Assembly (NCBI GenBank): GCA_020436785.1
Contig: JAGQXC010000184.1
Location: forward strand, 1-40,070
Length of the DNA: 40,070 bases
Direction of reading: 5' to 3'
From: Saprospiraceae bacterium
GTDB lineage: Bacteria > Bacteroidota > Bacteroidia > Chitinophagales > Saprospiraceae
The notes below the pieces were generated by a model. It saw only the letters and a list, made by a program, of their open reading frames with translations. It was not told where the DNA came from and made no database searches. Shown in pieces: positions 1-14,768 of this stretch. The position numbers and the translations under genes were made by a program. Within the stretch, counting starts at the first letter, position 1; each line of letters begins with the position of its first letter.

Positions 1-3000
1 AATTGATTAAAACCCAACGACAAAACCTCAAGGTCGGAAAGATTACCAATGGAAACAGGAATGGGTCCACTCAATTGGTTGGAATCCAAAACGAGCCATT
101 TTAAGTTTAATATTTCCCCAATTTCAGATGGTATGGATCCCATTAGTCCATTATTGTCTAAATCAACGCGCTCTACACATCCATCTCCACTAAATGCAAG
201 TCCATACCAGAACGTTATTGGCTGGTTCAAGTCCCAGGAGTGGATCCAGTTTGATCCACTTGTGGCATTATACAAAGACACCAAAGCCAATGAATCCCTT
301 TCCCGACAATCGTCAGAAATAACATTAATAGTAATCGTATAACTCTCCAGTGTTAAATCAGGCGCACGAGGATTAGAAATATGAACATCATATTGACCCG
401 CATCACTGAATGAAACAGTGGTAAAATCCAGATTATTATTCCCCAAAATTACGCGGTAGGCCTTACCATCTTTATTCCATTGGTATACATTATCCGCAAT
501 ATTTTCATCCACGAGTAAATCAATCTGTAAGTTCGATCCAAATACTGCATAAATCACAGTGTCTCTAAATATCTTTTGTTGCGGGCTATAACCTACATTC
601 CCACCATTTCCTTCGGTCAAATTTGTATTTGAAGTAAGGCTGCTTAGAATATCTTCAAATGTCAGTTGGTTATTTTCTACAAAATAAAGCTTCAACTGAG
701 GGCATGGAGTTGCCAGATCAGGGAGTTCCTGATATAAATAATTGTATCCTGTGACCAATTGCTGCAAATTTGGCAAATTGGAAAAATTGGGAATTCCCCC
801 TGTTAAATTATTATGAGTGCATTGTAGAGAAATAAGCTTCGGACAATTGGTAAAATCGGGTATGGATCCGGATAAATTATTATACCAGCAATTCAAATTC
901 TCCAGATTTGGCAAATTGGAAAAATTGGGAATTTCTCCACCGAGAGGGTTGTTGGCACAAAACAGTGTGACCAGGTTTGGTAAATTTGAAAAATCAGGAA
1001 TTCCTCCGGTAAGAGTATTCATTTCAGCATTGAATGTCTCCAGGTAGGGCAAATTTGAGAAATCAGGTATCGATCCAGATAATGCATTATTGCGGCAGTA
1101 CAAATGTATTAACTCTGGCAGCCCGGTAAAGTCAGGTATTGTACCCGTAAAATGATTGTAACTTAGATTTAAAATCTCCAATCTCGGCAACTGCAAATCA
1201 GGGATAGTGCCGGTTAAATTATTGCCATGCTGGCCAGTGATATCCAATTCACATAAATTATCTCCACCATCAAGGTCAACACACCTTACACATCCTTCTT
1301 CATTCAATTCCACTCCATACCAGGTATCCATCGGCTGATTCAAATCCCAGGTTACTGTCCAGTTTGGTCCATCTGTCGCATTGTACAAGGCTACCAGAGC
1401 CAATGAGTCTCGCTCACGACAATCAATTGCAATAAGCTCTCCCTGGCACCCACAGTCACCTTGTATTCTGTCATTGCTCGTATTGGGATCTCCATCATCA
1501 CAGGGTGCACCAGTTTGTGGCTCACCAGCACAGAAGCGCGAGAAATCGCCCTGCCAGGGTAGCTTTGGGTTGTTAGAAAAACCATAACTGATCGAACAAA
1601 ATGCGCTAAACGAGCTATCAAAACATCCTTCAAGATTGTTATTGTCAAGACCTATGGTACCGAGGTTTTCCAATTGACTTAATTCAGCTGGTATCTCACC
1701 ACTTAATTGATTAAAATTTAGCCACAAGATATCAAGGTTGGATAACTTTGATAATTCAGGAGGAATGCTTCCTGATACTTCATTGAAACTAAGTCTAAAA
1801 GACTTGAGCATAGTTAAATTACCAAATTCCCTAGGTATTTGACCTCTGAATCCATTATTCCCCAGCCCTAATTCCTCTAAATATGATAATTGCCCTATTT
1901 CAGGTGGTAAGCTGCCTGTTAAAGCATTTACATCTAAATGAAGTTCTACCAATGATGTCAAATTTCCCAAGTCATTTGGCAATTCACCTGTCAATTGATT
2001 ATAACCAAGGTCCAGGTTGTTTAATTTTACCAGGCTCCCTAATTCAAAAGGGATGGAACCAGTTAAATCATTTTTACTGAGGTCTAGTTCTTCCAGTTGA
2101 ATCAAATTACCCAAGTCTTTGGGAATGCTTCCAATTAATTTATTAAAGCCTATTGATAGAACTTTTAAATGCCGTATTTCGCCAATTTGTATAGGTATAC
2201 TTCCTGTCAGATTATTCCCAGAATTGTTGTCATTCTTTACAATACCGCAATCTGGCACTCCATCCAAATCCAAACAGGTTACACAGCCATTACCATTCAA
2301 CTCCACTCCGAACCAGGTATCCATCGGCTGATTCAAGTCCCAGGTCACCGTCCAGTTTGGTCCATCTGTTGCATTATACAAGGCTACCAATGCTAGAGAA
2401 TCCTGGCCTCGACAGGATACGGTATCTCCTGCGCAAGAGCAATCTGTCCGTATGCGGTCATTTAACGTGTAGGGATTGGAGTCATCGCAAGTGGCACCGG
2501 TTTGTGATTCCCCGGCACAGAAACGGGAGAAATCGCCTTGCCAGGGAAGCAACGAGTTATTGGTAAAATCATAATCGATGAAACAACTGGAAGTCAGTGA
2601 TTGAGGAAAACAACCACTAAACTGATTATCGTTCAGTTTTAAAATGGAAAGATTACTTAATGTTCCCAGGTAATCAGGCAACTCATCATTCAATTGATTT
2701 TGATAGGCGATGAATTCAGCCAGACTGTCTGCATTACTTAAACTTTTAGGCAATGCTCCAGACAAATTATTCTGATACAACCAAAGCGCTTTTAGCTTGG
2801 ACATTGAACCAAAAATTTCTGGAATATCTCCTACTAGCTGATTGTTATCCAGCCATAATAATTGAAGATCTTTCAATTGGGATAACTCCAAAGGTATTAA
2901 TCCCGATAGTTCATTATTTGCAAGCAGCAGCCAGGACAATTGAGTTAGATTACCTAACTCTTTTGGAATCTCACCCGTCAAGGCGTTTAATCGCAAGTCC

Positions 3001-4301
3001 AACTGGTTTAGTTGGCTTAAATTACCTATCGAACCTGGTATGGTTCCGGATAGATCATTATCCGCTAGCAATAACAAACGCAATGCTCCAAGTTGTCCCA
3101 ACTCGACGGGTATTTCTCCATGTAAAGCATTGGCTCCTAACTTAATTTCCGTTACACAACCTTCATCATTCATCTCAACCCCATACCAGGTATCCATCGG
3201 TTGATTCAAATCCCAGGTTACGGTCCAGTTTGGTCCACCTGTAGCCTTATAAAATACTACAAGTGCAAGTGAGTCATTCTTATGACACAATAAATCCTGA
3301 CCAATACAAACACAATCATTATTTATATTATCATCTATGGTATTAGGATTACCATCATTACATGGTGAACCGATTTGTTGTTCACCATTGCAATAAAAGG
3401 ATAAATCACCCTCCCAAGGCAATCTTGGATTATCAATAAATTTCCACGGTTGATCACAAAATCGTTTATATGATTCAGGAAAACATCCTTCAAAGTCATT
3501 TGACCAGAAATCGATTATCTTTAATTCAGGCAATCGCCCAAGCACCTCTGGAAGCTGTCCAAATAAGTTATTTTGGCTAAGTCTAAAAGATTCTAATTTT
3601 GTCAAATTTTCCAAGTTGGCTGGCACTTTCCCTGATAGATTATTCCCTTGCAACCATAATTTTTTAACATTAATTAAATTACCTAATTCATTCGGAATCG
3701 TATCTTTAAAATTATTCTCATGTAAAAAAAGGACTTCAAGTTTATTTAAATTACTTAAACTAGTAGGGATTTCTCCCTCCATATTATTCCATTGTAACTT
3801 AAGTTCTTTTAAAGACTGCAAATCACCTAATTCCTGAGGGATAATCCCTGTAAGTTTATTTTCATGTAACCAAAGCAATTCCAATGATTTTAATTTTCCA
3901 ATTGCTTTCGGTAACGGCCCAGTCAATCCATCATTCCACGAAATATTTAATATTTTTATTTGACTAAAATTCCCAATTTCTTCAGGTAAGTAACCCATTA
4001 AATTAACACCTTGAGTGCTTCTATCTCCACAATCATCCCAGCCATCTAGATCTAAACATTCAACACATCCTTCCGAATTTAAATGGACCCCAAACCAACT
4101 ATCTATATTTTTTTTAAAGTTCCACCTATAATTCCAATTTGGCCCATCCATTGCATTGTACAATGCAACCAATGCCAATGAATCCCGCTGCCGGTCACAG
4201 GTCTGGCCGGTAAGGGTTTGGGGCAAGAAGGCGGCTATAAGGATAATAAGGATCAGTTTGTTAATGCCATTATGGATCCAACGTGTATATCTCGCATTCA
4301 T
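1..4301 (-). CDS. Giant modular leucine-rich-repeat surface protein (partial, C-terminus beyond left edge)
   Basis: The reading frame is open from the ATG at 4301 to the left edge, at least 1433 residues, with no stop in the window. Residues 1-33 form a signal peptide (hydrophobic ILIILIAAFL, cleavage near GQ). Five modules start with a RDSLALVALYNATDGPNW-like motif whose Asp lies at residues 40, 343, 634, 965 and 1336. Each continues with a Trp-rich stretch (WDLNQPMDTWYGV), a Cys-containing VDLDG segment and an array of plant-type LRRs (GxIPxxIGxLxxLxxLxLxxNxL). Linkers before modules 2-4 carry a DDGxPNTxxDxI..C.C.G motif typical of Saprospiraceae secreted proteins. Residues about 1253-1322 look Ig-like. 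An in-frame TAG lies 30 bases upstream of the chosen ATG, with no other ATG between. Export to the surface by T9SS is likely but the sorting domain would lie outside the window. Probable role: adhesion or ligand binding. The gene is visibly more AT-rich than the caspase-like gene before it. Confidence 0.9.
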   Translation of the reverse strand, partial: MNARYTRWIHNGINKLILIILIAAFLPQTLTGQTCDRQRDSLALVALYNAMDGPNWNYRWNFKKNIDSWFGVHLNSEGCVECLDLDGWDDCGDRSTQGVNLMGYLPEEIGNFSQIKILNISWNDGLTGPLPKAIGKLKSLELLWLHENKLTGIIPQELGDLQSLKELKLQWNNMEGEIPTSLSNLNKLEVLFLHENNFKDTIPNELGNLINVKKLWLQGNNLSGKVPANLENLTKLESFRLSQNNLFGQLPEVLGRLPELKIIDFWSNDFEGCFPESYKRFCDQPWKFIDNPRLPWEGDLSFYCNGEQQIGSPCNDGNPNTIDDNINNDCVCIGQDLLCHKNDSLALVVFYKATGGPNWTVTWDLNQPMDTWYGVEMNDEGCVTEIKLGANALHGEIPVELGQLGALRLLLLADNDLSGTIPGSIGNLSQLNQLDLRLNALTGEIPKELGNLTQLSWLLLANNELSGLIPLELSQLKDLQLLWLDNNQLVGDIPEIFGSMSKLKALWLYQNNLSGALPKSLSNADSLAEFIAYQNQLNDELPDYLGTLSNLSILKLNDNQFSGCFPQSLTSSCFIDYDFTNNSLLPWQGDFSRFCAGESQTGATCDDSNPYTLNDRIRTDCSCAGDTVSCRGQDSLALVALYNATDGPNWTVTWDLNQPMDTWFGVELNGNGCVTCLDLDGVPDCGIVKNDNNSGNNLTGSIPIQIGEIRHLKVLSIGFNKLIGSIPKDLGNLIQLEELDLSKNDLTGSIPFELGSLVKLNNLDLGYNQLTGELPNDLGNLTSLVELHLDVNALTGSLPPEIGQLSYLEELGLGNNGFRGQIPREFGNLTMLKSFRLSFNEVSGSIPPELSKLSNLDILWLNFNQLSGEIPAELSQLENLGTIGLDNNNLEGCFDSSFSAFCSISYGFSNNPKLPWQGDFSRFCAGEPQTGAPCDDGDPNTSNDRIQGDCGCQGELIAIDCRERDSLALVALYNATDGPNWTVTWDLNQPMDTWYGVELNEEGCVRCVDLDGGDNLCELDITGQHGNNLTGTIPDLQLPRLEILNLSYNHFTGTIPDFTGLPELIHLYCRNNALSGSIPDFSNLPYLETFNAEMNTLTGGIPDFSNLPNLVTLFCANNPLGGEIPNFSNLPNLENLNCWYNNLSGSIPDFTNCPKLISLQCTHNNLTGGIPNFSNLPNLQQLVTGYNYLYQELPDLATPCPQLKLYFVENNQLTFEDILSSLTSNTNLTEGNGGNVGYSPQQKIFRDTVIYAVFGSNLQIDLLVDENIADNVYQWNKDGKAYRVILGNNNLDFTTVSFSDAGQYDVHISNPRAPDLTLESYTITINVISDDCRERDSLALVSLYNATSGSNWIHSWDLNQPITFWYGLAFSGDGCVERVDLDNNGLMGSIPSEIGEILNLKWLVLDSNQLSGPIPVSIGNLSDLEVLSLGFNQ
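1315..1396 (-). repeat. LRR-gene module repeat, copy 1 of 3
   Basis: This 82-base stretch encodes the NATDGPNWTVTWDLNQPMDTWYG part of module 4. It differs from the copy at 2308-2389 at only about 7 positions by eye, including silent sites. The flanking LRRs are much more diverged, which suggests recent duplication or gene conversion. Confidence 0.75.
2308..2389 (-). repeat. LRR-gene module repeat, copy 2 of 3
   Basis: Same 82-base unit as at 1315-1396, encoding the conserved Trp-rich part of module 3. A second near-identical stretch links these two modules: about 35 bases from 1529 and from 2516, coding for the linker with PWQGDFSRFCAGE. Confidence 0.75.
3181..3262 (-). repeat. LRR-gene module repeat, copy 3 of 3
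   Basis: The 82-base unit of module 2, colinear with 1315-1396 and 2308-2389 but more diverged at its downstream end. The corresponding parts of module 5 (from 202) and module 1 (near 4090-4180) are recognisable only more weakly. Confidence 0.65.
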
Positions 4302-4316
4302 GCTACTGGTTTTGGG

Positions 4317-4346
4317 TGTATTGCGTTCCGTCCTCTAATGTTAACA
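4317..4346 (-). promoter_or_regulatory. Putative ECF-type promoter of the LRR gene (site D)
   Basis: Read on the minus strand, TGTTAACA (4346-4339) is followed after 14 bases by GCAATACA (4324-4317). The LRR start codon is 15 bases further on. The same two boxes with 13 or 14 bases between them occur at three other gene starts (9929-9957, 10026-10055, 13005-13033). The site lies in the 63-base gap after the caspase-like gene, so the LRR gene may have its own promoter. Confidence 0.6.
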
Positions 4347-4364
4347 CATCCCCTCATTATGATT

Positions 4365-7300
4365 TTATTCATCACGAATAAATATCGGTAACCGCCCTGC
4401 TACCGGTTCCTGCAGCAGGACCGGGCGTTGGGAGGTAATGATGTCTTTCTTCTCGGCAACCAGCTCAGGCACACGGTCACGGGCATATTCGTACCACTCG
4501 CCCAGGGTTATGATGCGGTTGTCATCCTGGTCAATACCGGCGGTAGCGAGACCTTCCTTTAAGGCCAGGGTGAACGCGCTGTTGTCCCAGCGGTCATCGG
4601 CATAGGACAACTCGCCGGGTCCACAGGACAGCACGAAGTAAAAATCATTGGCACTGGCAGCCAGGGCATGTAGTGCCTCCGACAACGCGATCTCATCGGG
4701 TATGGGTTCCGACTTTACCCCTTCCGGCACATCCAGGTTGGCGATGGACCCGCTGTAGCAGGCGTCAATGAAGAGGATCTTTTTACAAGGTAATAGCTTC
4801 AGCTTATCAAGTACCTCGGTCTGAAAATCCAGTGATGTTTCCTCTTCATACAAAAAATCAAAATCGGAAGCCGCCAGCCGATAGCGATCATCAAGGACAA
4901 AGCCATGCGAAGACCAATAGAAAATAAGCACATCGTTGGGCTTGATGCGCCCGAACTCCAGGTAGTCCAGCTGGATATCACGGATGCTCTTCCGGATGGC
5001 TTGGGTTGTCGTACTACTGGCCGAATTGTAAACTGTGGTGTTGACACGATCGAACAGCAGGTCTTCCTGTCCACTGAAAAGCTGACTGAAGTCCTGCGCA
5101 TCCTTGCTGACCCAGGGCAGATCCTCAAAAGGCACTCCGTAAGCGTACACATGCAGATTGACTCGCGGCGGTTCGTAATAAACAAAGACATCGGGAACCG
5201 GACACTGGTGCTCAGCATTGGACAGCAGAACTTCTATCCGGTTTTCCCCTTCATGCAATACGGCAGAGGCTTGAAGGTTGTACTGATAGCCAACAACATA
5301 CGGCCCACCCTGCCAGGTTGATGACACGGTGTCGACCCCACCTTGATAATGGACCAGGGTCTGGACTTTCCAGAAAGAATCCACCGGCTGATTGGACACA
5401 TAACGGAGCAACAAAGGAAAGCGATCCAGCTGGGTATGCACCACATCCGCTTTCTGGATCGGATCCGGCTGGATCCAGAACAGTTGACCTTGCCACATTT
5501 CGTCTACGGATGGCTTCACCACCTCTTTTTCTTCAGTCAAAGTGGGTTGAAAGTCAGGCAGGGTCACTTTTTGCAGAAAGGAATCCAGGGGCAAAGCCTC
5601 CACCTGGCTGGAGGTAATTTGACCCAACGACCTGTTTTTCAAAGCATCCAGGGCCAATATGGCGATGCGCTGCTGCCGGGCATCCTGGTAAGCCATTTTT
5701 ACCGGGTTAAGGTCCAGGCGATAATGTCTCATAAATACAATCGAATCGTTGTGATGTGAAACCAGCACCTCCAGATGGAGACTATCTTCGGCATCCTGCC
5801 CCAGATGGAAAGGCACCTGGATTTCCCTGGTCTCACCAGGAGCAATCTTAACGGGTGCCAAATCATTATCCAATTCAAGCCAACCCGGAGCGATGAGTTT
5901 TAATTGTACCGGTTGAGTTGAGCTGTTACCGGAATTTTTGATTTGCAAAGGTAGGAATGCAAAATGATCTTCCTGATGATCACCCAGGCGAATGGAATCC
6001 AGTGTCACCTCATAGTGTTCTTCCGGAGCAACACCGGCGAAGAATTGAGCATCAGCCAAGGGCCGGCCCCCAGCCTCCAGTTGAATGGAGGCATTACCGG
6101 GGCTTTGGGATGCAAAAGGGAATGCAAAATATTGGCTTATTTTTTCACCAGGTGCAATCCACACCGAAGTCTGGGTAGCCCCGACCGTGGTCTGGCCATC
6201 CACCTGAATGGTGACTTTCGGAGCCCGGATTGGCGTAGATCCGCTATTTGTCAATTCCAGCCAGGATATCAATGTTTCGCCGCTCCGGACCGTATCTTCC
6301 GGAGGGTGCCAACGCCATGGATTTTCTGAAAAGTCAAAGTTTTTCAATTGCGGTGATGCTTGCAGATTCACCATCCAGCCATCGGCGCCATTGGCATCAC
6401 CGGAGGCACTTTGTCCAAGTACCTGGATCCTGCCCGAAGCTAACTCTCTTGCAGAAGCAAACCATTCGTCCTGGCTACCACCCAGAAATCGCTCCCGGAT
6501 AGCATTTCCAGCCGAGTCGATAACCTGGATCCACCCTTGCGAACGATGGGCACCCTGGCGCAGGTGGGAGTAACTCAATCCAAACAAAATCAGGGTATCG
6601 ATATCACTCCGAACGATGACTCGTCCTTCATCCCTGAACCGGCCACCGTATAATTGCGATGCCAGGATCTTACCGGAAGCAGCATCCAGTTTGAGTATCC
6701 CGGCCTGATCCCTGAACCGGGGATCCCATGCATTGGCCAACACGATCAATTCCTGGGAAGTAAAAGGAAAGATGTCCACTCCCTTCCTGAATGGCTCTTG
6801 ATTGCGCTTTTGCCAGTGGATAGCACCGGCCTGATTCATCGAGAACGTGATCAACCGGTTATTACCCGCTGTACCGGTCCCGTACAAATTGCCATTCAGC
6901 AGGATCAATTTCTGCACCGCACCGGGGTCCGCATCCAGGCTCGTCTTCCACTTCACACCATGGTCGCGATAGGCAATTACACCGGGCTTATTCTCCATCG
7001 AACCGCCCAGGAAATACTGGCCGGGGTCCGCCTCCGTAATCGTATTCCAATAGGCATTTGGGGTAGGATCGTAATAAATAAACCGATCCAGTAGCCTTCC
7101 TTCTTTTGAGAAGGTCAGCATAATGGGCTTAACTTCAGTTGTATTAATCGATCCGGCCAGGGATATGGCTCCAACCACTACAATATCACCTTGTTTATTT
7201 ATGAGTACACCTCTACCCTCATCATCGTGGGTATATCCGATGTTTTTACGCCACAGGATTTCGCCGGCAGAATCGGATAACTGGATCAGGATGTCTTTAC

Positions 7301-7499
7301 CTTTACCTTGCTTACCCTGAGTGAATCCGACCGCAACGATTTCCCCTCCAGGAAATACATCCATTGCCATAAATGCATCGTCTCCCGGCAACAATGAAAG
7401 ACGCTCTGAGACCGGTTCAGTGATTTGTGCCGATAGCTGCCGGATGGGTATGGTACAACACATCAGTAAAAACAAAAGGAAGATGGGTTGATGTCTCAT
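4365..7499 (-). CDS. Secreted caspase-like (peptidase C14) protein with N-terminal propeller-like repeats
   Basis: 1044 residues. Residues 1-25 form a signal peptide ending in LSAQ. Residues about 30-390 hold repeated GEILW.../DIVVVGA-like segments that resemble a beta-propeller of the kind found in Bacteroidota secreted proteins. Residues about 400-620 look like CARDB/Ig-type folds (ISWLELTNSGS, LQIKNSGNSST). The C-terminal part from about residue 790 is a caspase fold: SSHGF gives catalytic His865 and DACYSG gives catalytic Cys914. Both dyad residues are present, so an active cysteine peptidase is likely. No T9SS sorting domain ends the protein, so it may act in the periplasm or be released. 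It sits directly upstream of the LRR gene on the same strand. A perfect hairpin terminator at 7573-7607 separates it from the gene before it. No copy of the TGTTAACA/GCAAT motif was found before its start. Confidence 0.88.
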   Translation of the reverse strand: MRHQPIFLLFLLMCCTIPIRQLSAQITEPVSERLSLLPGDDAFMAMDVFPGGEIVAVGFTQGKQGKGKDILIQLSDSAGEILWRKNIGYTHDDEGRGVLINKQGDIVVVGAISLAGSINTTEVKPIMLTFSKEGRLLDRFIYYDPTPNAYWNTITEADPGQYFLGGSMENKPGVIAYRDHGVKWKTSLDADPGAVQKLILLNGNLYGTGTAGNNRLITFSMNQAGAIHWQKRNQEPFRKGVDIFPFTSQELIVLANAWDPRFRDQAGILKLDAASGKILASQLYGGRFRDEGRVIVRSDIDTLILFGLSYSHLRQGAHRSQGWIQVIDSAGNAIRERFLGGSQDEWFASARELASGRIQVLGQSASGDANGADGWMVNLQASPQLKNFDFSENPWRWHPPEDTVRSGETLISWLELTNSGSTPIRAPKVTIQVDGQTTVGATQTSVWIAPGEKISQYFAFPFASQSPGNASIQLEAGGRPLADAQFFAGVAPEEHYEVTLDSIRLGDHQEDHFAFLPLQIKNSGNSSTQPVQLKLIAPGWLELDNDLAPVKIAPGETREIQVPFHLGQDAEDSLHLEVLVSHHNDSIVFMRHYRLDLNPVKMAYQDARQQRIAILALDALKNRSLGQITSSQVEALPLDSFLQKVTLPDFQPTLTEEKEVVKPSVDEMWQGQLFWIQPDPIQKADVVHTQLDRFPLLLRYVSNQPVDSFWKVQTLVHYQGGVDTVSSTWQGGPYVVGYQYNLQASAVLHEGENRIEVLLSNAEHQCPVPDVFVYYEPPRVNLHVYAYGVPFEDLPWVSKDAQDFSQLFSGQEDLLFDRVNTTVYNSASSTTTQAIRKSIRDIQLDYLEFGRIKPNDVLIFYWSSHGFVLDDRYRLAASDFDFLYEEETSLDFQTEVLDKLKLLPCKKILFIDACYSGSIANLDVPEGVKSEPIPDEIALSEALHALAASANDFYFVLSCGPGELSYADDRWDNSAFTLALKEGLATAGIDQDDNRIITLGEWYEYARDRVPELVAEKKDIITSQRPVLLQEPVAGRLPIFIRDE

Positions 7500-7572
7500 A
7501 TTGGATCTTGCATCTACAAATTGGCTCCTCTAAATTACGATCATTGAATTTAATACTTGACGGTATAATCTT

Positions 7573-7607
7573 AAAAAACCATGACCGGTTTAACTCGGTC
7601 ATGGTTT
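7573..7607 (-). terminator. Rho-independent terminator after the cohesin/dockerin gene
   Basis: On the minus strand a perfect 12-bp stem (arms 7607-7596 and 7587-7576, AAACCATGACCG with its complement) encloses an 8-base loop and runs directly into six T residues (7578-7573, three shared with the stem). It lies about 160 bases after the stop of the cohesin/dockerin gene and before the caspase-like gene. The stem is AT-flanked and could also work weakly in the other direction. Confidence 0.85.
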
Positions 7608-7765
7608 ATGTTTAGGATGTTATGCCATTAAATCAATCCGGGAAATTAAAACCTGGTGCTATCAAATCCCTGACCAATCTGTTTTCGACGGTGTCGACCA
7701 AGGTGTCAAAAAGTGGAACTTTGATTTTGGACCATCTATCACAAATGATCAAACCTTGAATACCG

Positions 7766-9901
7766 TTAATTGAGCACCTGATAGGATACCTTGATAAACT
7801 TTTCCGAAAGATAGGTGGTTCCCATCCGGCATTGAGCAATGTATCCACCCGCACTCCAAGAAGCCAGGGGTACCCGTATGCGTTGAACGCCCGCCTCTTC
7901 CACCTGACGGTAAGCCCAGATGAAACGGCCTTGCATATCGTAAATCTTTATCTCCACTTCCCCGGGCTTTGGAACGGTAAGCGCTATATCCGTAAAACTA
8001 TTGGCGGGATTGGGTGAGATGGAATTGATCTCAAAGTTATTTTTTGGTGCGGAAGCACGCGTTTCGATCCGGATGGCATAGGGGTCATTGTTACTATCCT
8101 CGACCATGTTCATCATCCGGCCTTTCGTGGTGGTAAACAAATCAGGCGTGGACAAATTGTTATCAGTACGAATCCTTAAGCGTAATACAGGGTCCCCGGC
8201 ATTTATCGTACGTATTGCAGTAGATTCATTCACCCAAACAATATTCAGCTCCTCACCGGATTTCGACTTTCGAACGTAATAATCCTGATCGTCAAAGCCA
8301 TTGAGGACATCCGATTCAACATCCAGGATCTCAATTCCGGATAAGAGGGGCAGGCTTAATTGCAGCCCTTCCAGTTTTTGGTCGTTCTTTGCCAAAATGT
8401 TGATGGTCTTATAAGGTCCATTTAATGTGGCTGCATCCCAACTGGCTTCCCAGGTGATGGCTTCCCGAATTTCGACCGGCTGTTCCTGCAGATTGCGGCG
8501 GGCATCGAGGGTCACGTCACCGATCTTAACCCCAATAAAATTGACCCCCTGTTCGGCTTTTGCCGGATTGGTCAATTCCGCGACCACGGGAAATTCCTCC
8601 GTCAATGGCGCCTCAGGATGGTTGAAAACATAAGACTCAGGGATGAATTTCCAGACGTACGGATTGGGCAAGGTATCGATAACACCCAGCATCAGTCGTT
8701 TGATCAGGACCAGATCGATCACACTTAAATGCCGGTCGTCGGAAACATCGGCGGCGATGTATTTGTAGGGTGAGTCAAAAGGAAGGATCTCTAAGAGATG
8801 TTGTTTGATGGCAATGATGTCTGCGATACTGATCCCATTCAGATAATCGCCTCCTTTACTGACGTGGATGGCATAATCCACCCCATTGGGTATCTGATCA
8901 AAATGATAATGACCGGTCGCATCGGTATAGGTTGAAAATTCATTCAATTGAACCAACGCGTTGGCAATCGGTTTGCCATTTTCGATGTGTACCAGTCCGG
9001 AACAATCATTGAAAACCCGCAAGCACATCGTTCCCGATTCCAGTCCGTAAGGGATCGCCTGAAGGCCGTTCAGTTGAGCGCGATAAAACTCGATAGGCAG
9101 AAACTCTCCGTCAAAGTGTACCGATACGCAGGTGTCTACGGCCTGTACCGGGGTAAAAAAAAGGTAAAAGAGGGGCTGATCCCCCGGCCATGCAGTTCCA
9201 TTGGCCTCGGTACTCAACCAAATCATTCCCAGATGATCATTCCGAAGGGCTATATCCTGGCCTGACAATCCAGGCAAATGAATGGATCCGACTGAATCAA
9301 AATGAAAAAGGGAGGATTCGGGAAGTTGGATGCTAAACTGCATGCCCAACATATTGGTGAATCCACTGGCAAATACCGGCAATGCCACTTGGCCATTAGG
9401 ATCTGCTTCAATGGAAGGCATCGAAAGACGGACATAGGGAATATCAAAGGGTGTAACCTTCACATTATTTAATTTGGAACATTCTGTAAGGTAGTCTGCA
9501 TTGGCAACCGCAATTAAAAAATGATATTCATTGAAATTCAGTGTCAAGGGGTTGGAACTAATGATCGTAAAGGTTTCTCCTGCCGCAATGGGGTTCAAAG
9601 GAAATTCACCCAAAGTAACCTTACTGTGGAGGATGTCGGATTGATCAAGGATAGAATCCCTGGAAAAATAGATGGATACGGTTGCATTATCCTCCAGATT
9701 CAGTGATGGACCCTGCAGATCGGTGGCCTGGTTTCCTATATTTTTCAAATGAAAAGAAATGGTCTGATCGGTTGGGGTAAATTCAAGGACATTCAGCTGA
9801 ATGAGGGCAAGATCTGCACAGGAATCCGGGCTTTGCGCAGAAATGGTTTTCACCGAAATCAGTAGAATCGCCCAGAGGAGTTGGTACATGTTCTTTTTCA
9901 T
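7766..9901 (-). CDS. T9SS-exported protein with cohesin-like and dockerin-like domains
   Basis: 711 residues from the ATG at 9901, which starts MKKNMYQLLWAILL; an ATG two codons upstream (9907) is equally possible. Order: signal peptide 1-23; CARDB-like 28-152; cohesin-like beta-sandwich 156-295 (MLGMQFSIQLPES); carboxypeptidase-regulatory-like 297-345 (GKPIANALVQLNE...TDATGHYHF); a paired dockerin-like EF-hand region about 349-410 (SIADIIAIKQHLL and SVIDLVLIKRLML); second cohesin-like domain about 483-612; Por-type sorting domain 624-711 (ISPNPANSF, IKIYDMQGR). Cohesin-dockerin pairs are known from cellulosomes, where they bind each other across polypeptides. In Bacteroidota such modules are common but the partners are mostly unknown. 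The gene is divergent from the ECF sigma operon and both starts carry the same motif. Confidence 0.85.
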   Translation of the reverse strand: MKKNMYQLLWAILLISVKTISAQSPDSCADLALIQLNVLEFTPTDQTISFHLKNIGNQATDLQGPSLNLEDNATVSIYFSRDSILDQSDILHSKVTLGEFPLNPIAAGETFTIISSNPLTLNFNEYHFLIAVANADYLTECSKLNNVKVTPFDIPYVRLSMPSIEADPNGQVALPVFASGFTNMLGMQFSIQLPESSLFHFDSVGSIHLPGLSGQDIALRNDHLGMIWLSTEANGTAWPGDQPLFYLFFTPVQAVDTCVSVHFDGEFLPIEFYRAQLNGLQAIPYGLESGTMCLRVFNDCSGLVHIENGKPIANALVQLNEFSTYTDATGHYHFDQIPNGVDYAIHVSKGGDYLNGISIADIIAIKQHLLEILPFDSPYKYIAADVSDDRHLSVIDLVLIKRLMLGVIDTLPNPYVWKFIPESYVFNHPEAPLTEEFPVVAELTNPAKAEQGVNFIGVKIGDVTLDARRNLQEQPVEIREAITWEASWDAATLNGPYKTINILAKNDQKLEGLQLSLPLLSGIEILDVESDVLNGFDDQDYYVRKSKSGEELNIVWVNESTAIRTINAGDPVLRLRIRTDNNLSTPDLFTTTKGRMMNMVEDSNNDPYAIRIETRASAPKNNFEINSISPNPANSFTDIALTVPKPGEVEIKIYDMQGRFIWAYRQVEEAGVQRIRVPLASWSAGGYIAQCRMGTTYLSEKFIKVSYQVLN

Positions 9902-9928
9902 AATCATGGATTTTTTTCGATTTGTCCA

Positions 9929-9957
9929 TAGATTGCAGCACAAACCAAATGTTAACA
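9929..9957 (-). promoter_or_regulatory. Putative ECF-type promoter of the cohesin/dockerin gene (site A)
   Basis: On the minus strand TGTTAACA (9957-9950), 13 bases, then GCAATCTA (9936-9929). The start codon lies 27 bases further. A T6 tract precedes it (minus strand TTTTTTGTTGGC), as at the divergent sigma-factor site. The CTGTTAACATTT core is identical to that of site B. Confidence 0.65.
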
Positions 9958-10025
9958 GCCAACAAAAAATGGCTCGGTGAATCTCAGTTCATATTGGCTA
10001 CAGGCAGAAGGTTTTTTTGGATTAC

Positions 10026-10055
10026 TGTTAACATTTATAGAAATGGAGCAATCTA
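10026..10055 (+). promoter_or_regulatory. Putative autoregulatory promoter of the ECF sigma operon (site B)
   Basis: TGTTAACA (10026-10033), 14 bases, then GCAATCTA (10048-10055). It is preceded by a seven-T run (10012-10018). The sigma-factor ATG follows 12 bases after the second box, so the mRNA would be nearly leaderless if the second box is the -10 element. Shared boxes with site A make a divergent, co-regulated intergenic region. Confidence 0.65.
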
Positions 10056-10067
10056 AATAGGCAAGAC

Positions 10068-10622
10068 ATGACCGATGAGGAGATCATCCAACTGATCCAG
10101 GATGAAAAACAAGAAGGTATGGTAGCGCTTTACGATGACGCTTTCAACCTTGTCCGAACCTTGGTTATCCGAAACAGTGGTTCTTCAGAGGATGCTGAAG
10201 ACCTATTTCAGGAAGTGCTGGTCGTCCTGGTCAAACAGATCCGCAAGGGTTCTTTTGAGTTAAAAGGGAAACTGACCACCTACATTTATGCGGTGGCTAG
10301 CAAGCAATGGCTGTATATACTGCGTCAACGCAAAGGGAAGGAAGCTGTAAGCCTGGATGATGGGAAAACAGTGGCACTCGAAGGATGGGCGGAAGAAGAC
10401 CTGGCGGAAAAAACTGAATATGAAGAAAAACACACCTTGATCGCTGAAAAATTAAAACAGCTCAATGAAGAATGCCAGAAGATCATTCAATGGTTTTATT
10501 ACAATAAGATTCCGTTGCTGGAAATCGGAAAGAAATTGAAATACACGGAAGGGTCGATCCGCGTGAAAAAGAATCGCTGCATGAATTATCTTAAAAAATT
10601 AGTACTAGGTGAATCCAAATGA
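10068..10622 (+). CDS. ECF-type RNA polymerase sigma factor
   Basis: 184 residues, the normal length for an ECF sigma factor. Region 2 spans about 20-88 (EDAEDLFQEVLVVL and the -10 reading helix TTYIYAVASKQWL). Region 4 spans about 128-178 (QKIIQWFYYNKIPLLEIGKK followed by the helix-turn-helix GSIRVKKNRCMNYLKKL). No region 3 and no C-terminal extension. It is the first gene of an operon: the next gene starts inside its last codons (GTG at 10609). The matching promoter-like motif in front of it suggests that it transcribes its own operon. I infer that it serves envelope-related functions because the neighbours are exported proteins. Confidence 0.93.
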   Translation: MTDEEIIQLIQDEKQEGMVALYDDAFNLVRTLVIRNSGSSEDAEDLFQEVLVVLVKQIRKGSFELKGKLTTYIYAVASKQWLYILRQRKGKEAVSLDDGKTVALEGWAEEDLAEKTEYEEKHTLIAEKLKQLNEECQKIIQWFYYNKIPLLEIGKKLKYTEGSIRVKKNRCMNYLKKLVLGESK

Positions 10623-11490
10623 TAAAAACGATAAAACCCCGCTGGAACAATGTGAAGAACATTTCCAGCTTACAGCCGGTCAACCAGACCCGGGATTCGA
10701 TGCATTGATCCAAAAGGACCCGGAAGTGCGTTTTTGGTATGATCAACTCCCGCAAATCATTAAAGCGGTGGAAAAAGTTACAGAAGATCAAATAAGGGAA
10801 GAAATTCGGGCGGCTCATGCTTTTTGGCAAACTGGTGCTGATGACCCTGATGAAGCCTGGGAAGATGATGTCATGAAAGCTCTGGATCTGAATGAATCCA
10901 ATAAAATCAGGACCGAGATCCATAACATCAATCCGTCTACGACACAAAAAGAGCCAGTGATTCGGAACCTCTATTACCAGCGAATCATCCAGATTGCAGC
11001 CATCGTCTTACTGGCTATTTTGAGCTTTTGGGGCTATCAAAATTGGAATTCAGCCCAGCATTTAAAACAAGGTTTACTCGCCTACGGACAATTCATCCAG
11101 GACGATATCGATCAACTGGAGTTGCAAGGCATTGGAATAGAAAACCCGGACGCCCGTGAACAATTGTCTGAGGTACTTAAAAATTTTGGCAGCAACCCGG
11201 CTCTTGACCTGGAGAAGCTGGACGCCGTCCTCAACACGACACCTGATCTGGAAGAAGCCTACCTTTATAAAGCCATTTCATTGGCCCGGTTAAAACGCTA
11301 TGAAGAGGCCTTGGCTACCTTGGAAAATATTAATGAAACGAGCTTCGGTTGTGAATTACCTTATTATAAAGCCTTGATCCGTCGTATGAATGGCGATAAG
11401 AGTGCACTCCGAGAGATACGCGAATTGCCACAACGTTATCCGGATTGCCAATTAACCGAAGAAATAAACCAATTACTCAAGGAATTGTGA
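10609..11490 (+). CDS. Single-pass membrane protein with TPR-like tail, putative anti-sigma factor
   Basis: 293 residues. The GTG start at 10609 overlaps the sigma gene by 14 bases, which implies translational coupling. Residues 1-122 are charged and would be cytoplasmic, with helical stretches such as VEKVTEDQIREEIRAAHAFW. One transmembrane helix spans about 125-143 (IIQIAAIVLLAILSFWGY). The outer part (150-293) has helical TPR-like repeats (EEAYLYKAISLARLKRYEEAL). No zinc-type anti-sigma HxxxCxxC motif and no FecR domain are visible. Position, coupling and topology fit a transmembrane anti-sigma factor whose outer part senses a signal. That role is inference; only the gene position and topology are seen. 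Confidence 0.7.
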   Translation: MNPNDKNDKTPLEQCEEHFQLTAGQPDPGFDALIQKDPEVRFWYDQLPQIIKAVEKVTEDQIREEIRAAHAFWQTGADDPDEAWEDDVMKALDLNESNKIRTEIHNINPSTTQKEPVIRNLYYQRIIQIAAIVLLAILSFWGYQNWNSAQHLKQGLLAYGQFIQDDIDQLELQGIGIENPDAREQLSEVLKNFGSNPALDLEKLDAVLNTTPDLEEAYLYKAISLARLKRYEEALATLENINETSFGCELPYYKALIRRMNGDKSALREIRELPQRYPDCQLTEEINQLLKEL

Positions 11491-12941
11491 AAAGGACCTG
11501 TACATATGGCTTATTGTTAATCTTCACCTTAATGACACAATTCGTCCTGGGTCAATCCATGATTGATACCATCTATCAGCATATTTTACAGGCCAACGCC
11601 ATTGATCCAGCCATCGCCCCAGCGCTAGAAATTGCACCTTCCAAAAGTTTTGGCGCTGCCTATCAACCGTCTTCAAATACGATCCTGGTGGAAAAACATC
11701 TTCTGTTTGCGCTTGATGAAATGGGCGAATCAAAAAAAGATGCATTGGCTTTTCTAATCGGCCATGAACTGACGCACGCCCTTCAACATCTGGATCATTT
11801 TGAACATTTCATCGCCTACGACAAATCCCCAAACCACGATCGGAATAAGGAAGAAAGTGCTGATATTCAAGGTGCATTTATGGCCCACCTGGCTGGTTTT
11901 GAATGCGGCCCGGTACTACCCCACTTAATAGACGCTTTGTATCAAATCTATCAGCTGCAGGATGATTTGGCAGGTTATCCTACCAAATCGGAAAGGCAGT
12001 ACACCATTTGGAAAGTAGTTGATCAGGTGAACAAACTGCAATACATGTATGAACTGGCCAATCTATTAACGCTTGGGGGTGAAGAAGCATTGGGGAGCAA
12101 TTTGTACACCGAAATCATGACGTATGTACCTAGCCCGATCCTGGAATACAACATCGGGATCGGATTTGTTCGAACTGCACTTAAAAGTTGCAGTTATCAG
12201 GTGGATCAGTTTGTCTTACCGATCGAGTTGGATTGGTCGTTGCGATTAGACCTTCCAAAATTACCGGGCGGAACCAAAGAATTGCCGATCGGCGAGCGGT
12301 ACAAGCGGGATATAAATTTGAAAAAAGCGAGCATTCACTTTATGAAGAGCCTTGAGCTGAATCCGGAGTACACCAATGCCATTGCCGGTTGGGCCATGGT
12401 CAAGCTATTGGAAGAAAATTACAATGAAAGTCAGGATATTCTGGGCAAAGCGCTGAATTCGGTCAGCCTTACCCAAAAAGGCAAAGACCTCTTTCAACTT
12501 ATCCTGGGTATCAGTCACCTGGCAACCGGTGCTGTTTCTAGCGCAAATCAAATCTTCAGGCACATCAATGATCCATCGTATGCTTTCTATGCAAAACTCA
12601 ATGAGCGCCTAGCCAGTAATCAAAAGGTGGAACCACCAAATGGTTCCATCCCTAAGATTGTCGATTTTCCTGAATTTGCTAGCTCGCCCACAGAACTGAG
12701 GTTTAAAGTCCAGAACGCTTTGGTTGAGGTATCGGGTCACAATTACCGGCTAACCACCGTATCCGGATGTCAATATGATTTTATCCATGTGGATTCGGCA
12801 AAGGATCAAGGGGTTCCATTCCATGAAATCAAAAATCAGATCAGCGACAACCTGCAGTATTTGAGTCATTACGATCCATTTACACACCAGTGGATTGCTT
12901 ATTACTTCACCACCCTGCCCTGCTCCTCCCCGTCAAAATGA
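11487..12941 (+). CDS. Secreted M48-like zinc metallopeptidase with TPR-like C-terminus
   Basis: 484 residues from the GTG at 11487, which overlaps the previous stop as GTGA. This start gives a clean signal peptide (KRTCTYGLLLIFTLMTQFVL, cleavage after GQ); an upstream in-frame TTG at 11445 lies inside the previous gene and is less likely. The catalytic motif is HELTH (93-97), followed by EESAD (122-126), which matches the ExxAD third-ligand motif of M48 peptidases. Residues about 195-400 are helical and resemble tetratricopeptide repeats (YKRDINLKKASIHFMKSLELNPEYTNAIAG). The protein should act in the periplasm. As third gene of the sigma operon it might process a surface or anti-sigma protein, but this is inference. 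Confidence 0.82.
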   Translation: MKRTCTYGLLLIFTLMTQFVLGQSMIDTIYQHILQANAIDPAIAPALEIAPSKSFGAAYQPSSNTILVEKHLLFALDEMGESKKDALAFLIGHELTHALQHLDHFEHFIAYDKSPNHDRNKEESADIQGAFMAHLAGFECGPVLPHLIDALYQIYQLQDDLAGYPTKSERQYTIWKVVDQVNKLQYMYELANLLTLGGEEALGSNLYTEIMTYVPSPILEYNIGIGFVRTALKSCSYQVDQFVLPIELDWSLRLDLPKLPGGTKELPIGERYKRDINLKKASIHFMKSLELNPEYTNAIAGWAMVKLLEENYNESQDILGKALNSVSLTQKGKDLFQLILGISHLATGAVSSANQIFRHINDPSYAFYAKLNERLASNQKVEPPNGSIPKIVDFPEFASSPTELRFKVQNALVEVSGHNYRLTTVSGCQYDFIHVDSAKDQGVPFHEIKNQISDNLQYLSHYDPFTHQWIAYYFTTLPCSSPSK

Positions 12942-13004
12942 CGACAGCCTTCACCTGATGTTCAGTCTTACTACCCATTATTTTATGAAATAATTTAGGA
13001 ATGC

Positions 13005-13033
13005 TGTTAACAATGTGCAGATCCTGCAATACA
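13005..13033 (+). promoter_or_regulatory. Putative ECF-type promoter of the small basic protein gene (site C)
   Basis: TGTTAACA (13005-13012), 13 bases, then GCAATACA (13026-13033). The ATG at 13073 is 39 bases further on. The second box is identical to that of site D in front of the LRR gene. Confidence 0.6.
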
Positions 13034-13072: not shown

Positions 13073-13360
13073 ATGAAAACCATCGTTACCTTATCCATCC
13101 TGACACTTTTCATCGCTTCACTACCAACAACCTCGCAGGCACAGCCGTCCACCGTTCAGTCAGAATTAGCCAGTATTCTACAAAAACGTCACAATGGCGG
13201 CAAATCAAAAACACTGATGGTAAAATCCCGCTATGGCAAACGCAAAAGCCGGGTGACTAAAAAATACGTAGCAAAACCAAAATGCGTGCGTAAACGGGCA
13301 AAATCCCAACGTCAGGCTGCCAGGCGCCGCTCGCATCAATCGGTGAGAATGCCTTTCTAA
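13073..13360 (+). CDS. Small exported, very basic protein of unknown function
   Basis: 95 residues. Residues 1-23 are a signal peptide (IVTLSILTLFIASLPTTSQAQ). The mature part is strongly basic: it is packed with Lys and Arg from about residue 38 to 90 (KSRYGKRKSRVTKKYVAKPK) and has a single Cys. I do not recognise a family. A mature protein this basic could bind DNA, LPS or another anionic surface polymer, which is speculation. It lies behind promoter-like site C and 46 bases before the beta-barrel gene on the same strand. Confidence 0.75.
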   Translation: MKTIVTLSILTLFIASLPTTSQAQPSTVQSELASILQKRHNGGKSKTLMVKSRYGKRKSRVTKKYVAKPKCVRKRAKSQRQAARRRSHQSVRMPF

Positions 13361-13406: not shown

Positions 13407-13988
13407 ATGAAATCAAATCACACCTTCAAAATCCTTCTCTTTTTCGGCCTACTATTCTTCTTGGGCGCATCTTATGCACAAATCAGTCAGGGCTCTATCC
13501 GGTTCGGTCCGGACATCAGTTACAGCAACAGTAAACTGAAAATCGACGGAATTAGTGCAAAATTCAAACAGTCCAACTTGAACGCTGGAATAACCGGAGG
13601 TTATTATGTCATCGATAACCTGGAGATAGGTGTCAGTTTAGGACTTTTATCCAATAAATCGAAGGTAGAATCTTACGAGGAAAAACAATCCGGATTCACT
13701 TTTGGTCCACACGTAGCCTATATGGTCCCCATCTCGGATAATTTGTATTTACCCATTTTAGGAGGCTTTGGATACAATTCATTAACGATTGATACCGATT
13801 ACGATGAACTAACCTTCGGCGGCATTTCCTTTGGAGTGGGCACTGGTTTAGAATACTTAATCGATCACAAAATTGGAGCCCGAATGAGTCTCGGCAGTGA
13901 TTTTGGCACGCTGAAGGACAATGACTCCGAAGCAGAAATTGATGTCAATGCATTTCAGTTTGGAGTTGGAGTAAGCTTCTATTTCTAA
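13407..13988 (+). CDS. Outer-membrane beta-barrel protein
   Basis: 193 residues with a signal peptide (ILLFFGLLFFLGASYAQ). The mature part shows alternating amphipathic beta strands with Gly-rich turns (GFTFGPHVAYMVPI, LYLPILGGFGYNSL, FQFGVGVSFYF) and ends in Phe, the usual C-terminal outer-membrane insertion signal. This fits the outer-membrane beta-barrel family of about 8 strands (PF13505-like). It follows the small basic gene at 46 bases and may share its transcript. Confidence 0.85.
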   Translation: MKSNHTFKILLFFGLLFFLGASYAQISQGSIRFGPDISYSNSKLKIDGISAKFKQSNLNAGITGGYYVIDNLEIGVSLGLLSNKSKVESYEEKQSGFTFGPHVAYMVPISDNLYLPILGGFGYNSLTIDTDYDELTFGGISFGVGTGLEYLIDHKIGARMSLGSDFGTLKDNDSEAEIDVNAFQFGVGVSFYF

Positions 13989-14234: not shown

Positions 14235-14768
14235 ATGAAAAAAATTTTTAATTTATTAATCCTTCTGAGTGCAATCAACTTTTGTATAGCTCAAAATGGA
14301 TATAACGTCTATAATACCACGTACGGAATCCCAAACATCTTGCCAACACAAACTATTCAGTCAAATGTTTTCGCTGGGTATGATGTGTACAATACAACCT
14401 ATGGAATTCCAAATATCTCACCAACGCAAATCACCAAACCAAATATGTATGGCGGATACGATGTCTACAACACAACCTATGGGGTACCTAATATTACGCC
14501 ATCAAAAACCACTAAACCAAATACATATGGCGGATACGATATCTACAACACAACGTATGGAATCCCCAATAGTACAGCATCAAAATCTACTAAACCAAAC
14601 ATGTTTGGAGGATACGATATCTATAATACAACCAATGGGATACCAAACATCACTCCGGCACAAACCACCAAACCCAATATATATGGGGGATATGATGTAT
14701 ACAATACGACCAATGGGATACCAAACATCACTCCTGTAAAGGTTATCAAACCTAGGGGTTATAATTAA
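14235..14768 (+). CDS. Exported protein made of six 26-residue tandem repeats
   Basis: 177 residues. Residues 1-20 form a signal peptide (KKIFNLLILLSAINFCIAQ). The rest, residues 22-177, is exactly six units of 26 residues with consensus GYDVYNTTYGIPNITP followed by a variable stretch and TKPNxYG. Nothing follows the last unit. The repeats are rich in Asn, Thr, Tyr, Gly and Pro, have no Cys and few charges. The NTT motifs are sequons by sequence, but this does not prove glycosylation. No T9SS domain or lipobox is present. I do not recognise a family; a structural or adhesive extracellular role is a guess. It is less GC-rich than its neighbours. Confidence 0.8.
   Translation: MKKIFNLLILLSAINFCIAQNGYNVYNTTYGIPNILPTQTIQSNVFAGYDVYNTTYGIPNISPTQITKPNMYGGYDVYNTTYGVPNITPSKTTKPNTYGGYDIYNTTYGIPNSTASKSTKPNMFGGYDIYNTTNGIPNITPAQTTKPNIYGGYDVYNTTNGIPNITPVKVIKPRGYN
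14298..14765 (+). repeat. Six 78-bp in-frame tandem repeats
   Basis: Units start at 14298, 14376, 14454, 14532, 14610 and 14688, each 78 bases. Middle units are most alike and the first is most diverged. There are no spacers, so this is a coding tandem repeat and not a CRISPR array. Confidence 0.9.

What the first reader, a model, noticed from the sequence alone, without database searches (positions are those of the whole stretch)
4317..13033. Shared bipartite promoter-like motif at four gene starts suggests an ECF sigma regulon
Seen: the palindromic 8-mer TGTTAACA occurs four times that I found in the window (4339-4346, 9950-9957, 10026-10033, 13005-13012), all intergenic. All four are followed, in the direction of the downstream gene, by GCAAT[C/A][T/C]A after 13 or 14 bases. 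Genes concerned: LRR protein, cohesin/dockerin T9SS protein, ECF sigma factor, small basic exported protein. About one chance TGTTAACA is expected per 65 kb. Known: ECF sigma factors recognise two short boxes and commonly transcribe their own gene. Inferred: this is the promoter of the sigma factor at 10068, linking a surface protein set to an anti-sigma/protease module.
Basis: partly seen in the sequence, partly recalled or inferred. Interest (0 to 1): 0.82.

Follow-up and report, generated by a model that had tools for sequence, protein, structure and literature searches.

The report
Local promoter code of one sigma factor
Four genes lying close together in a bacterial genome carry the same two-part DNA signal just before their starts, very probably the switch read by a gene-activating protein encoded among them, and related bacteria keep a very similar signal at related genes.

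Summary
Confirmed and extended. Four TGTTAACA-N13/14-GCAAT sites lie 15-42 nt before start codons (LRR protein, T9SS cargo protein, ECF sigma factor, small basic exported protein). In the 5.6-Mb genome TGTTAACA occurs 33 times, but only these four have GCAAT 10-17 nt downstream: a local regulon. The nearest relative (G024; sigma 44-45% identical, cargo and caspase genes syntenic) has two exact copies and one near copy, all on its 16-kb sigma contig.

The sigma gene belongs to a conserved module: ECF, single-TM TPR protein (putative anti-sigma), exported M48-like peptidase, often a caspase-like gene. The peptidase occurs in 131 of 399 family genomes. Many relatives carry TGATAAC[AC]-N13/14-GnAAT[ACT][AT]A[TC] before the ECF gene; a matrix trained without window or G024 finds exactly the four sites in the window, and sites before anti-sigma, peptidase, caspase and exported-protein genes elsewhere.

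Best reading: autoregulated, cluster-confined ECF sigma promoters. The palindrome is incidental. Open points: no start site is mapped; 26 of 55 ECF genes examined lack a match; in nine ECF genes the box overlaps the first ATG, which ordinary promoter spacing does not explain.

The parts
4320..4346 (-). Site 1: TGTTAACA-N14-GCAAT, before the LRR gene
   Evidence: GCAAT ends 18 nt before ATG
9932..9957 (-). Site 2: TGTTAACA-N13-GCAAT, before the T9SS cargo gene
   Evidence: 24 nt before ATG; the orthologous gene in G024 has an exact copy
10026..10052 (+). Site 3: TGTTAACA-N14-GCAAT, before the ECF sigma gene
   Evidence: 15 nt before ATG
13005..13030 (+). Site 4: TGTTAACA-N13-GCAAT, before the small basic exported protein
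   Evidence: 42 nt before ATG
3..4301 (-). LRR protein, hydrophobic N-terminus, cut by the contig end
4365..7499 (-). Caspase-like (peptidase C14) protein with hydrophobic N-terminus; probably in one operon with the cargo gene (inferred from strand and order)
   Evidence: PF00656 42.2 bits, cutoff 21.4; syntenic relative in G024, 36% over the C-terminal part
7766..9907 (-). T9SS cargo protein (sorting tail; carboxypeptidase-regulatory-like domain; weak dockerin match E 0.046)
   Evidence: 30% identical relative in G024
10068..10622 (+). ECF sigma factor (regions 2 and 4)
   Evidence: PF04542, PF04545 above cutoff; TIGR02937 71.2 bits, cutoff 42.9
10609..11490 (+). Putative anti-sigma: about 120 residues, one TM (121-144), TPR-like C-terminal part
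   Evidence: place behind the ECF gene kept in relatives; no anti-sigma domain found
11445..12941 (+). Exported M48-like HExxH peptidase with TPR-like part
   Evidence: no Pfam match itself, 9 of 12 aligned homologs match M48 at E 0.05 or better; HExxH invariant; TPR
13073..13360 (+). Small basic exported protein (95 aa, 24 K+R, 1 D+E)
13407..13988 (+). Outer-membrane beta-barrel protein, possibly co-transcribed from site 4 (inferred)
   Evidence: PF13505 62.7 bits, cutoff 28.7

Best explanation
The four sites are promoters read by RNA polymerase carrying the ECF sigma factor encoded at 10068-10622. Box 1 (TGTTAAC here, TGATAAC in most relatives with a site) is the -35 element; box 2 (GnAAT[ACT][AT]A[TC]) holds the -10 element. 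The sigma factor switches on its own operon (sigma, putative membrane anti-sigma, exported M48-like peptidase) and three neighbouring units: the T9SS cargo gene with the caspase-like gene behind it, the LRR gene, and the small basic protein, perhaps with the barrel protein behind it. An envelope signal would free sigma from the anti-sigma; the peptidase may take part in that release or in repair. Shown: the motif, its confinement to this cluster in this genome, and a very similar motif at related genes and modules in other genera. Inferred: that this sigma reads it, the operons, the anti-sigma role, the peptidase's part, the signal.
For: Only 4 of 33 TGTTAACA in the genome have GCAAT 10-17 nt downstream and all are in this 8.7-kb stretch; 0.13 pairs with a 13/14-nt gap are expected genome-wide. 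G024 has 2 exact copies in 5.0 Mb, both on the 16-kb contig of its sigma gene, plus one with a mismatch there. In 299 family genomes only G000 has 4 copies; of the nine with 2, only G024 has them within 8 kb of each other. Matrix from 21 ECF-upstream sites of other genomes: the only window hits of 13 bits or more are the four sites. 49 places of 20 bits or more in 39 sequences (17 are training sites) against mean 0.7, max 3, for 20 column-permuted matrices. Sites of 15 bits or more before genes not used in training: TPR protein 4 of 54, peptidase 7 of 65, caspase 7 of 22, held-out ECF 6 of 18; gene-interior controls 0 of 54, 0 of 65, 0 of 22, and 2 of 55 for ECF. Asymmetric boxes, one-base play in spacing and an AAC core in box 1 fit ECF promoters (recalled).
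Against: No start site is mapped. 26 of 55 ECF genes examined have no match of 15 bits or more. Box 2 lacks the CGT core of the one mapped flavobacterial ECF motif (passage of PMC9723704). In nine ECF genes the first ATG overlaps box 2, which the usual -35 to start distance does not explain. In 12 whole genomes a strict pattern gave 56 matches against 39 for the reversed control, 19 of the 56 in the sigma loci, and none in the locus for G405, G178, G083. The genomes of two other ECF relatives (L035, L036) have no exact TGTTAACA-type copy at the locus.
Confidence: 0.86

Rival explanations
1. The motif is an operator of a separate transcription factor, and the sigma gene is only one of its targets.
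For: TGTTAACA is a perfect palindrome in the window; in nine ECF genes the box overlaps the first ATG, as a repressor site might.
Against: The family box TGATAAC[AC] is not palindromic and the second box is unrelated to the first; half-site spacing varies by a base; the conserved module contains no other recognised DNA-binding protein.
Confidence: 0.08
2. The promoters are real but are read by another sigma factor of the cell (one of the other ECFs or the housekeeping sigma), not by the one at 10068.
For: The own genome has other ECF genes (7 matches at E 0.001 in all); TAnnTTTG occurs in 17 of 55 ECF upstream regions against a 7.6% background, so a housekeeping promoter may exist at some loci.
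Against: The full motif sits only around this ECF gene in G000 and G024 and tracks the same module in other genomes.
Confidence: 0.05
3. Chance or a recently duplicated stretch.
For: TGTTAACA alone reached 4 in 1 of 100 shuffles; sites 2 and 3 share 82.6% over 23 nt at and upstream of box 1.
Against: The two-box motif had 0 matches in 100 shuffles, the spacers differ, and it recurs at related genes in other genera.
Confidence: 0.01

Closest known systems
Autoregulated ECF sigma and membrane anti-sigma pairs (for example SigW and SigX of Bacillus subtilis; recalled)
   Same: Two-domain ECF protein, membrane protein encoded behind it, shared two-box promoter before its own operon and targets, AAC in the -35 box. 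SigW is the best solved relative (E 2.7e-07).
   Different: The second box is GnAAT.. and not CGT; the membrane partner has a TPR-like outer part and no recognised anti-sigma domain; an exported M48-like peptidase and often a caspase are linked; the regulon in the window's genome is confined to the cluster.
Das2/Dma2 (ECF21) of Bacteroides thetaiotaomicron
   Same: Bacteroidota ECF with an adjacent membrane anti-sigma; Dma2 mainly affects its own and neighbouring genes plus polysaccharide loci (passages of PMC13088901).
   Different: Dma proteins end in an outer-membrane beta-barrel after a long tether; here the outer part is TPR-like.
SigP of Porphyromonas gingivalis, with PorX/PorY
   Same: A Bacteroidota ECF sigma tied to the type IX secretion system (passages of PMC4800418).
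   Different: SigP acts on T9SS machinery genes and on another motif, C(T)AAA(G/C/T)A(T)A(C)T(A/G)A; here one T9SS cargo gene and other exported proteins.
SM6 motif of Flavobacterium psychrophilum
   Same: Mapped ECF-type promoters including an ECF/anti-sigma operon and T9SS genes (passages of PMC9723704).
   Different: CGT in the -10 region; not limited to one cluster.
Caspase systems with ECF genes (EACC2/TRADD-N neighbourhoods)
   Same: A caspase, an ECF sigma gene and a TPR protein stand near each other (passages of PMC8195603).
   Different: There the caspase proteins carry EACC2 or similar adaptor parts and the TPR protein is DUF1822; here the caspase has a hydrophobic N-terminus, and the TPR protein is single-TM without a DUF1822 match.

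Membership tests
ECF sigma factor (protein) | Sigma regions 2 and 4, about 160-200 residues, no other domain | tested here: met
   184 aa; PF04542 and PF04545 above cutoff; TIGR02937 above cutoff
ECF sigma with adjacent anti-sigma | Membrane protein encoded directly behind sigma and kept there | tested here: met
   One TM at 121-144; homolog beside the ECF gene in most ECF loci seen
ECF sigma with adjacent anti-sigma | Recognised anti-sigma domain, or proven binding to sigma | tested here: inconclusive
   No anti-sigma Pfam match in 12 members at E 0.05 (first 25 of 35 families shown); binding not testable; structure prediction not obtained
ECF promoter | Two boxes with nearly fixed spacing at gene starts, also before the sigma gene itself | tested here: met
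ECF promoter | CGT-type -10 core | tested here: not met
   Box 2 is GnAAT[ACT][AT]A[TC]; so its ECF nature rests on context and on box 1
ECF promoter | Mapped transcription start 5-10 nt after box 2 | not testable with these tools
   No transcript data
FecI/FecR (ECF10-like) | FecR-domain anti-sigma | tested here: not met
   No FecR match for the window's protein (nor in its table)
Das/Dma (ECF21) | Anti-sigma with C-terminal outer-membrane barrel | tested here: not met
   TPR-like C-terminal part
Known anti-phage defence system | Match to PADLOC models | tested here: not met
   0 matches at E 0.01 for the six window proteins given, LRR and barrel proteins not among them

The most novel reading that the evidence does not exclude
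A widespread envelope-sensing module of this family (ECF sigma, TPR-type anti-sigma, exported M48-like peptidase, exported caspase) in which, in several lineages, the sigma's self-directed promoter is laid so that its end overlaps the sigma start codon. Its transcript would then lack the sigma start but carry the full anti-sigma and peptidase genes, so that activation feeds back through the inhibitor only while the targets respond normally.
Probability: 0.13. Interest if true: 0.75.

Novelty: new variant of a known kind. Interest (0 to 1): 0.57.

Why it matters
ECF regulons are poorly mapped in Bacteroidota, and their anti-sigma partners mostly escape known domain models (6% beside a class I domain, passage of PMC7406223). 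A promoter motif that recurs across genera gives a direct way to list the targets of each copy of this module. It also ties an exported caspase-like protein and surface cargo to one switch, so that the function of exported bacterial caspases becomes testable.

Tried and rejected
Wider regulon in the own genome: one mismatch gave 24 matches against 27 control, so none can be claimed. The broader pattern TGWTAAC-N14/15-GCAAT gave 6 matches, the four sites plus two: one lies inside a gene (C417), the other has no plus-strand gene of 80 aa or more for about 980 nt (C358).

Exact pattern in the family: 52 of 299 genomes matched. By my count of its rows there are 64 matches against about 87 for the reversed control. 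Nine genomes have two; only G024's pair is close together, the other eight pairs lie on different contigs or over 300 kb apart. The exact TGTTAACA form is thus tied to this locus in G000 and G024 alone.

Module at outlying strict matches: 14 stretches fetched. Two hold a caspase-like gene, and in L207 the site stands before a gene that by eye resembles one behind a site in L197. None held a recognisable ECF, anti-sigma or peptidase gene. Most such matches are probably chance.

Housekeeping promoter: TAnnTTTG in 17 of 55 ECF upstream regions against 7.6% background; not followed. Defence system: no PADLOC match. Palindromic operator: given up because the family box is not palindromic. Structure of the putative anti-sigma: machine busy three times, no result.

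Rows dropped: L137 (3 kb, returned again) was not analysed. L174 and L192 (near copies) are listed (L192 and L174) but were left out of the counts. L173 (45 nt upstream) was left out only. L162 and L165 had no ECF match. The patterns were chosen after reading the sequences, which favours them; all 21 sites of the first 35 loci are training sites. The held-out ECF loci and the non-ECF genes do not share this bias.
Full report
OBSERVATION. The window contains exactly four TGTTAACA, at 4339, 9950, 10026 and 13005. All four are followed by GCAAT after 14, 13, 14 and 13 bases towards the neighbouring gene (100 shuffles gave none). Sites 1 and 2 read on the minus strand. The extended second box is GCAAT[AC][TC]A, as reported. 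The window is one whole contig (G000:C515) of a 5.6-Mb genome. There TGTTAACA occurs at 33 places and only these four have GCAAT 10-17 bases downstream. Given 66 oriented copies, 0.13 pairs with a gap of 13 or 14 bases are expected. With one mismatch the signal drowns (24 against 27 control). A broader pattern gives two further matches, neither in a promoter position. The motif is real and local.

GENES. Site 1 precedes an LRR protein cut by the contig end. Site 2 precedes a T9SS cargo protein (sorting tail; the dockerin match is weak, E 0.046), followed on the same strand by a caspase-like peptidase C14 protein. Site 3 precedes an ECF sigma factor, followed by a single-TM protein with TPR-like repeats (below Pfam cutoffs) and by an exported HExxH protein. 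Site 4 precedes a small basic exported protein, followed by an outer-membrane barrel. The HExxH protein has no Pfam match itself, but 9 of 12 aligned proteins match M48 at E 0.05 or better, and HExxH is invariant in the 12. The genome holds one copy of the peptidase at E 0.001.

NEAREST RELATIVE. Genome G024 (another genus, same family) has the same order: peptidase, TPR protein, sigma, divergent cargo gene, caspase, then exported proteins and an LRR gene. Identities: sigma 44-45%, peptidase 31%, cargo 30%, caspase 36% over its C-terminal part, TPR protein 31% over 134 columns. Its genome has two exact motif copies, both on this 16-kb contig: one before the related cargo gene, one before an exported protein. 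A third copy with one mismatch lies before a lipoprotein-like frame. With one mismatch allowed G024 has 10 matches in all (control 13), 3 of them on this contig. The exported protein is not detectably homologous to the window's barrel. Its sigma gene has the variant CGATAACA-N13-GTCATCTA, ending 2 nt from ATG. A quick tree of 54 ECF proteins puts the two sigma factors together (SH-aLRT 90). The genomes of two other ECF relatives found (L035, L036) have no exact TGTTAACA-type copy at the locus; L035 has the TGATAAC type (as L169), and L036 shows no clear copy by eye.

FAMILY. A profile of the two peptidases finds relatives in 131 of 399 family genomes at E <= 1e-15. One fetched locus (L169) is the same contig as a MAG titled Saprospiraceae (L035), so the family is probably Saprospiraceae. 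I fetched 80 stretches around peptidase matches. An ECF gene is found in 35 of the 37 loci analysed of the first set, and in 18 of 40 of the second, lower-scoring set (100 bits or more). In the first set TG[AT]TAAC stands upstream of the ECF gene in 21 of 34 loci (300 shuffles: mean 1.21, max 5), and the strict two-box pattern in 11 of 34 (mean 0.01, max 1) (patterns chosen). A matrix from 21 such sites reads nnnTGATAAC[AC], 13 or 14 bases, GnAAT[ACT][AT]A[TC]. In 39 sequences of 620 kb it finds 49 places of 20 bits or more (17 are training sites), against mean 0.7, max 3, for 20 column-permuted matrices. The site is clustered on the ECF tree but not in one clade (11 changes; shuffled mean 18.2, none of 500 as low).

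TARGETS. Sites of 15 bits or more within 220 nt upstream of the first ATG (or 40 nt into the gene): ECF 29 of 55 (21 are training sites; 6 of 18 held-out; window; G024), TPR protein 4 of 54, peptidase 7 of 65, caspase-like 7 of 22. Gene-interior controls: 2 of 55, 0 of 54, 0 of 65, 0 of 22. Of the frames behind the sites, 28 of 41 non-ECF frames have a hydrophobic N-terminus by a crude test, against 0 of 21 ECF frames (20 genes); the 41 include at least one site inside a gene. In several loci the anti-sigma (L169, L176, L183, L185), the peptidase (L183, L185, L197) or the caspase has its own site. A strict pattern was searched in 12 whole genomes: 56 matches against 39 for the reversed control, so there is little excess overall. 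19 of the 56 lie in the sigma loci: G000 2 of 2, G024 2 of 2, G225 3 of 6, G269 3 of 5, G380 3 of 6, G276 3 of 5, G305 1 of 4, G116 1 of 5, G369 1 of 11, and none in G405, G178, G083.

MECHANISM. Two asymmetric boxes with a one-base play in spacing, at gene starts, with an AAC core in box 1, clustered around an ECF gene in two genera and standing before the ECF gene in many more, are best read as promoters of that sigma. The palindrome of TGTTAACA is incidental. The gene behind sigma is the likely anti-sigma by place and topology only; no anti-sigma domain was found. This fits the report that in Bacteroidetes only 6% of ECFs stand beside a class I anti-sigma domain (passage of PMC7406223). The peptidase could cut the anti-sigma outside the membrane, or serve repair; this is inference.

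ANOMALY. In nine ECF genes the first ATG begins 2 nt after the GnAAT box, so that the last AT of box 2 is the AT of ATG (L102, L171, L175, L181, L185, L186, L187, L195, L223; L185 has a possible later start, L171 and L181 are near relatives). Eighteen of 29 ECF sites lie 0-15 nt from the first ATG, against 1 of 18 sites at TPR, peptidase and caspase genes. With the usual distance from -35 box to transcript start (recalled), such transcripts would begin at or inside the ECF gene. In five of the eight loci examined (L102, L171, L181, L195, L223; L185 was not examined) no other start codon follows within 20 codons. Either the start lies unusually near box 2 (leaderless mRNA), or these transcripts serve only the genes behind sigma, or the sites are operators there. 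In the window the distance is 15 nt. Leaderless mRNAs were 5.5% in F. psychrophilum (passage of PMC9723704).

LITERATURE. Searches: Saprospiraceae with ECF terms (0 papers), metacaspase with ECF, orthocaspase with sigma factor and Bacteroidetes, TGATAAC with sigma factor (78 papers, 10 listed, none on Bacteroidota by title), and broader ones (the last two list 3 and 12 of 65). In the listings I saw no title on this module or motif. I saw passages, not whole texts, of PMC4800418, PMC9723704, PMC7406223, PMC13088901, PMC8195603 and PMC3160421. The library holds only part of the literature, so novelty is provisional.

VERDICT. It is a known kind of system with an unusual partner set and, in relatives, an unusual overlap of promoter box and start codon.

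Noticed in passing
L102, L171, L175, L181, L185, L186, L187, L195, L223 (ECF starts): The second box overlaps the first ATG of the ECF gene with the same geometry (2 nt after GnAAT) in several genera.
   Followed up: partly
L008, L013, L017, L026, L030, L040, L044, L046, upstream of ECF genes: More distant ECF relatives often have GGTAACC- or ATTACCTTTT-like boxes near the start; perhaps diverged self-promoters (seen by eye).
   Followed up: no
L201 (G369:C556) 7069, 8026, 12072: Three sites of 22 bits or more around a caspase-like gene, with no ECF gene on the 20 kb fetched: perhaps a satellite target cluster.
   Followed up: partly
L197 8418 and L207 about 4416: Sites before genes whose products resemble each other by eye (GxYEIL..KVKHKF), perhaps kinase-like.
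   Followed up: no
window 14235-14768: A 177-aa exported protein made of repeats of about 26 residues (GYDVYNTTYGIPNI...), unknown family (no Pfam match).
   Followed up: no
55 ECF upstream regions: Housekeeping-type TAnnTTTG is more frequent than background (17 of 55 against 7.6%); in L171 it lies between the two boxes.
   Followed up: no
L102 13890-14261 and 15347 onward: Two similar lipoprotein-like frames; the second is short and seems broken. Described only.
   Followed up: no
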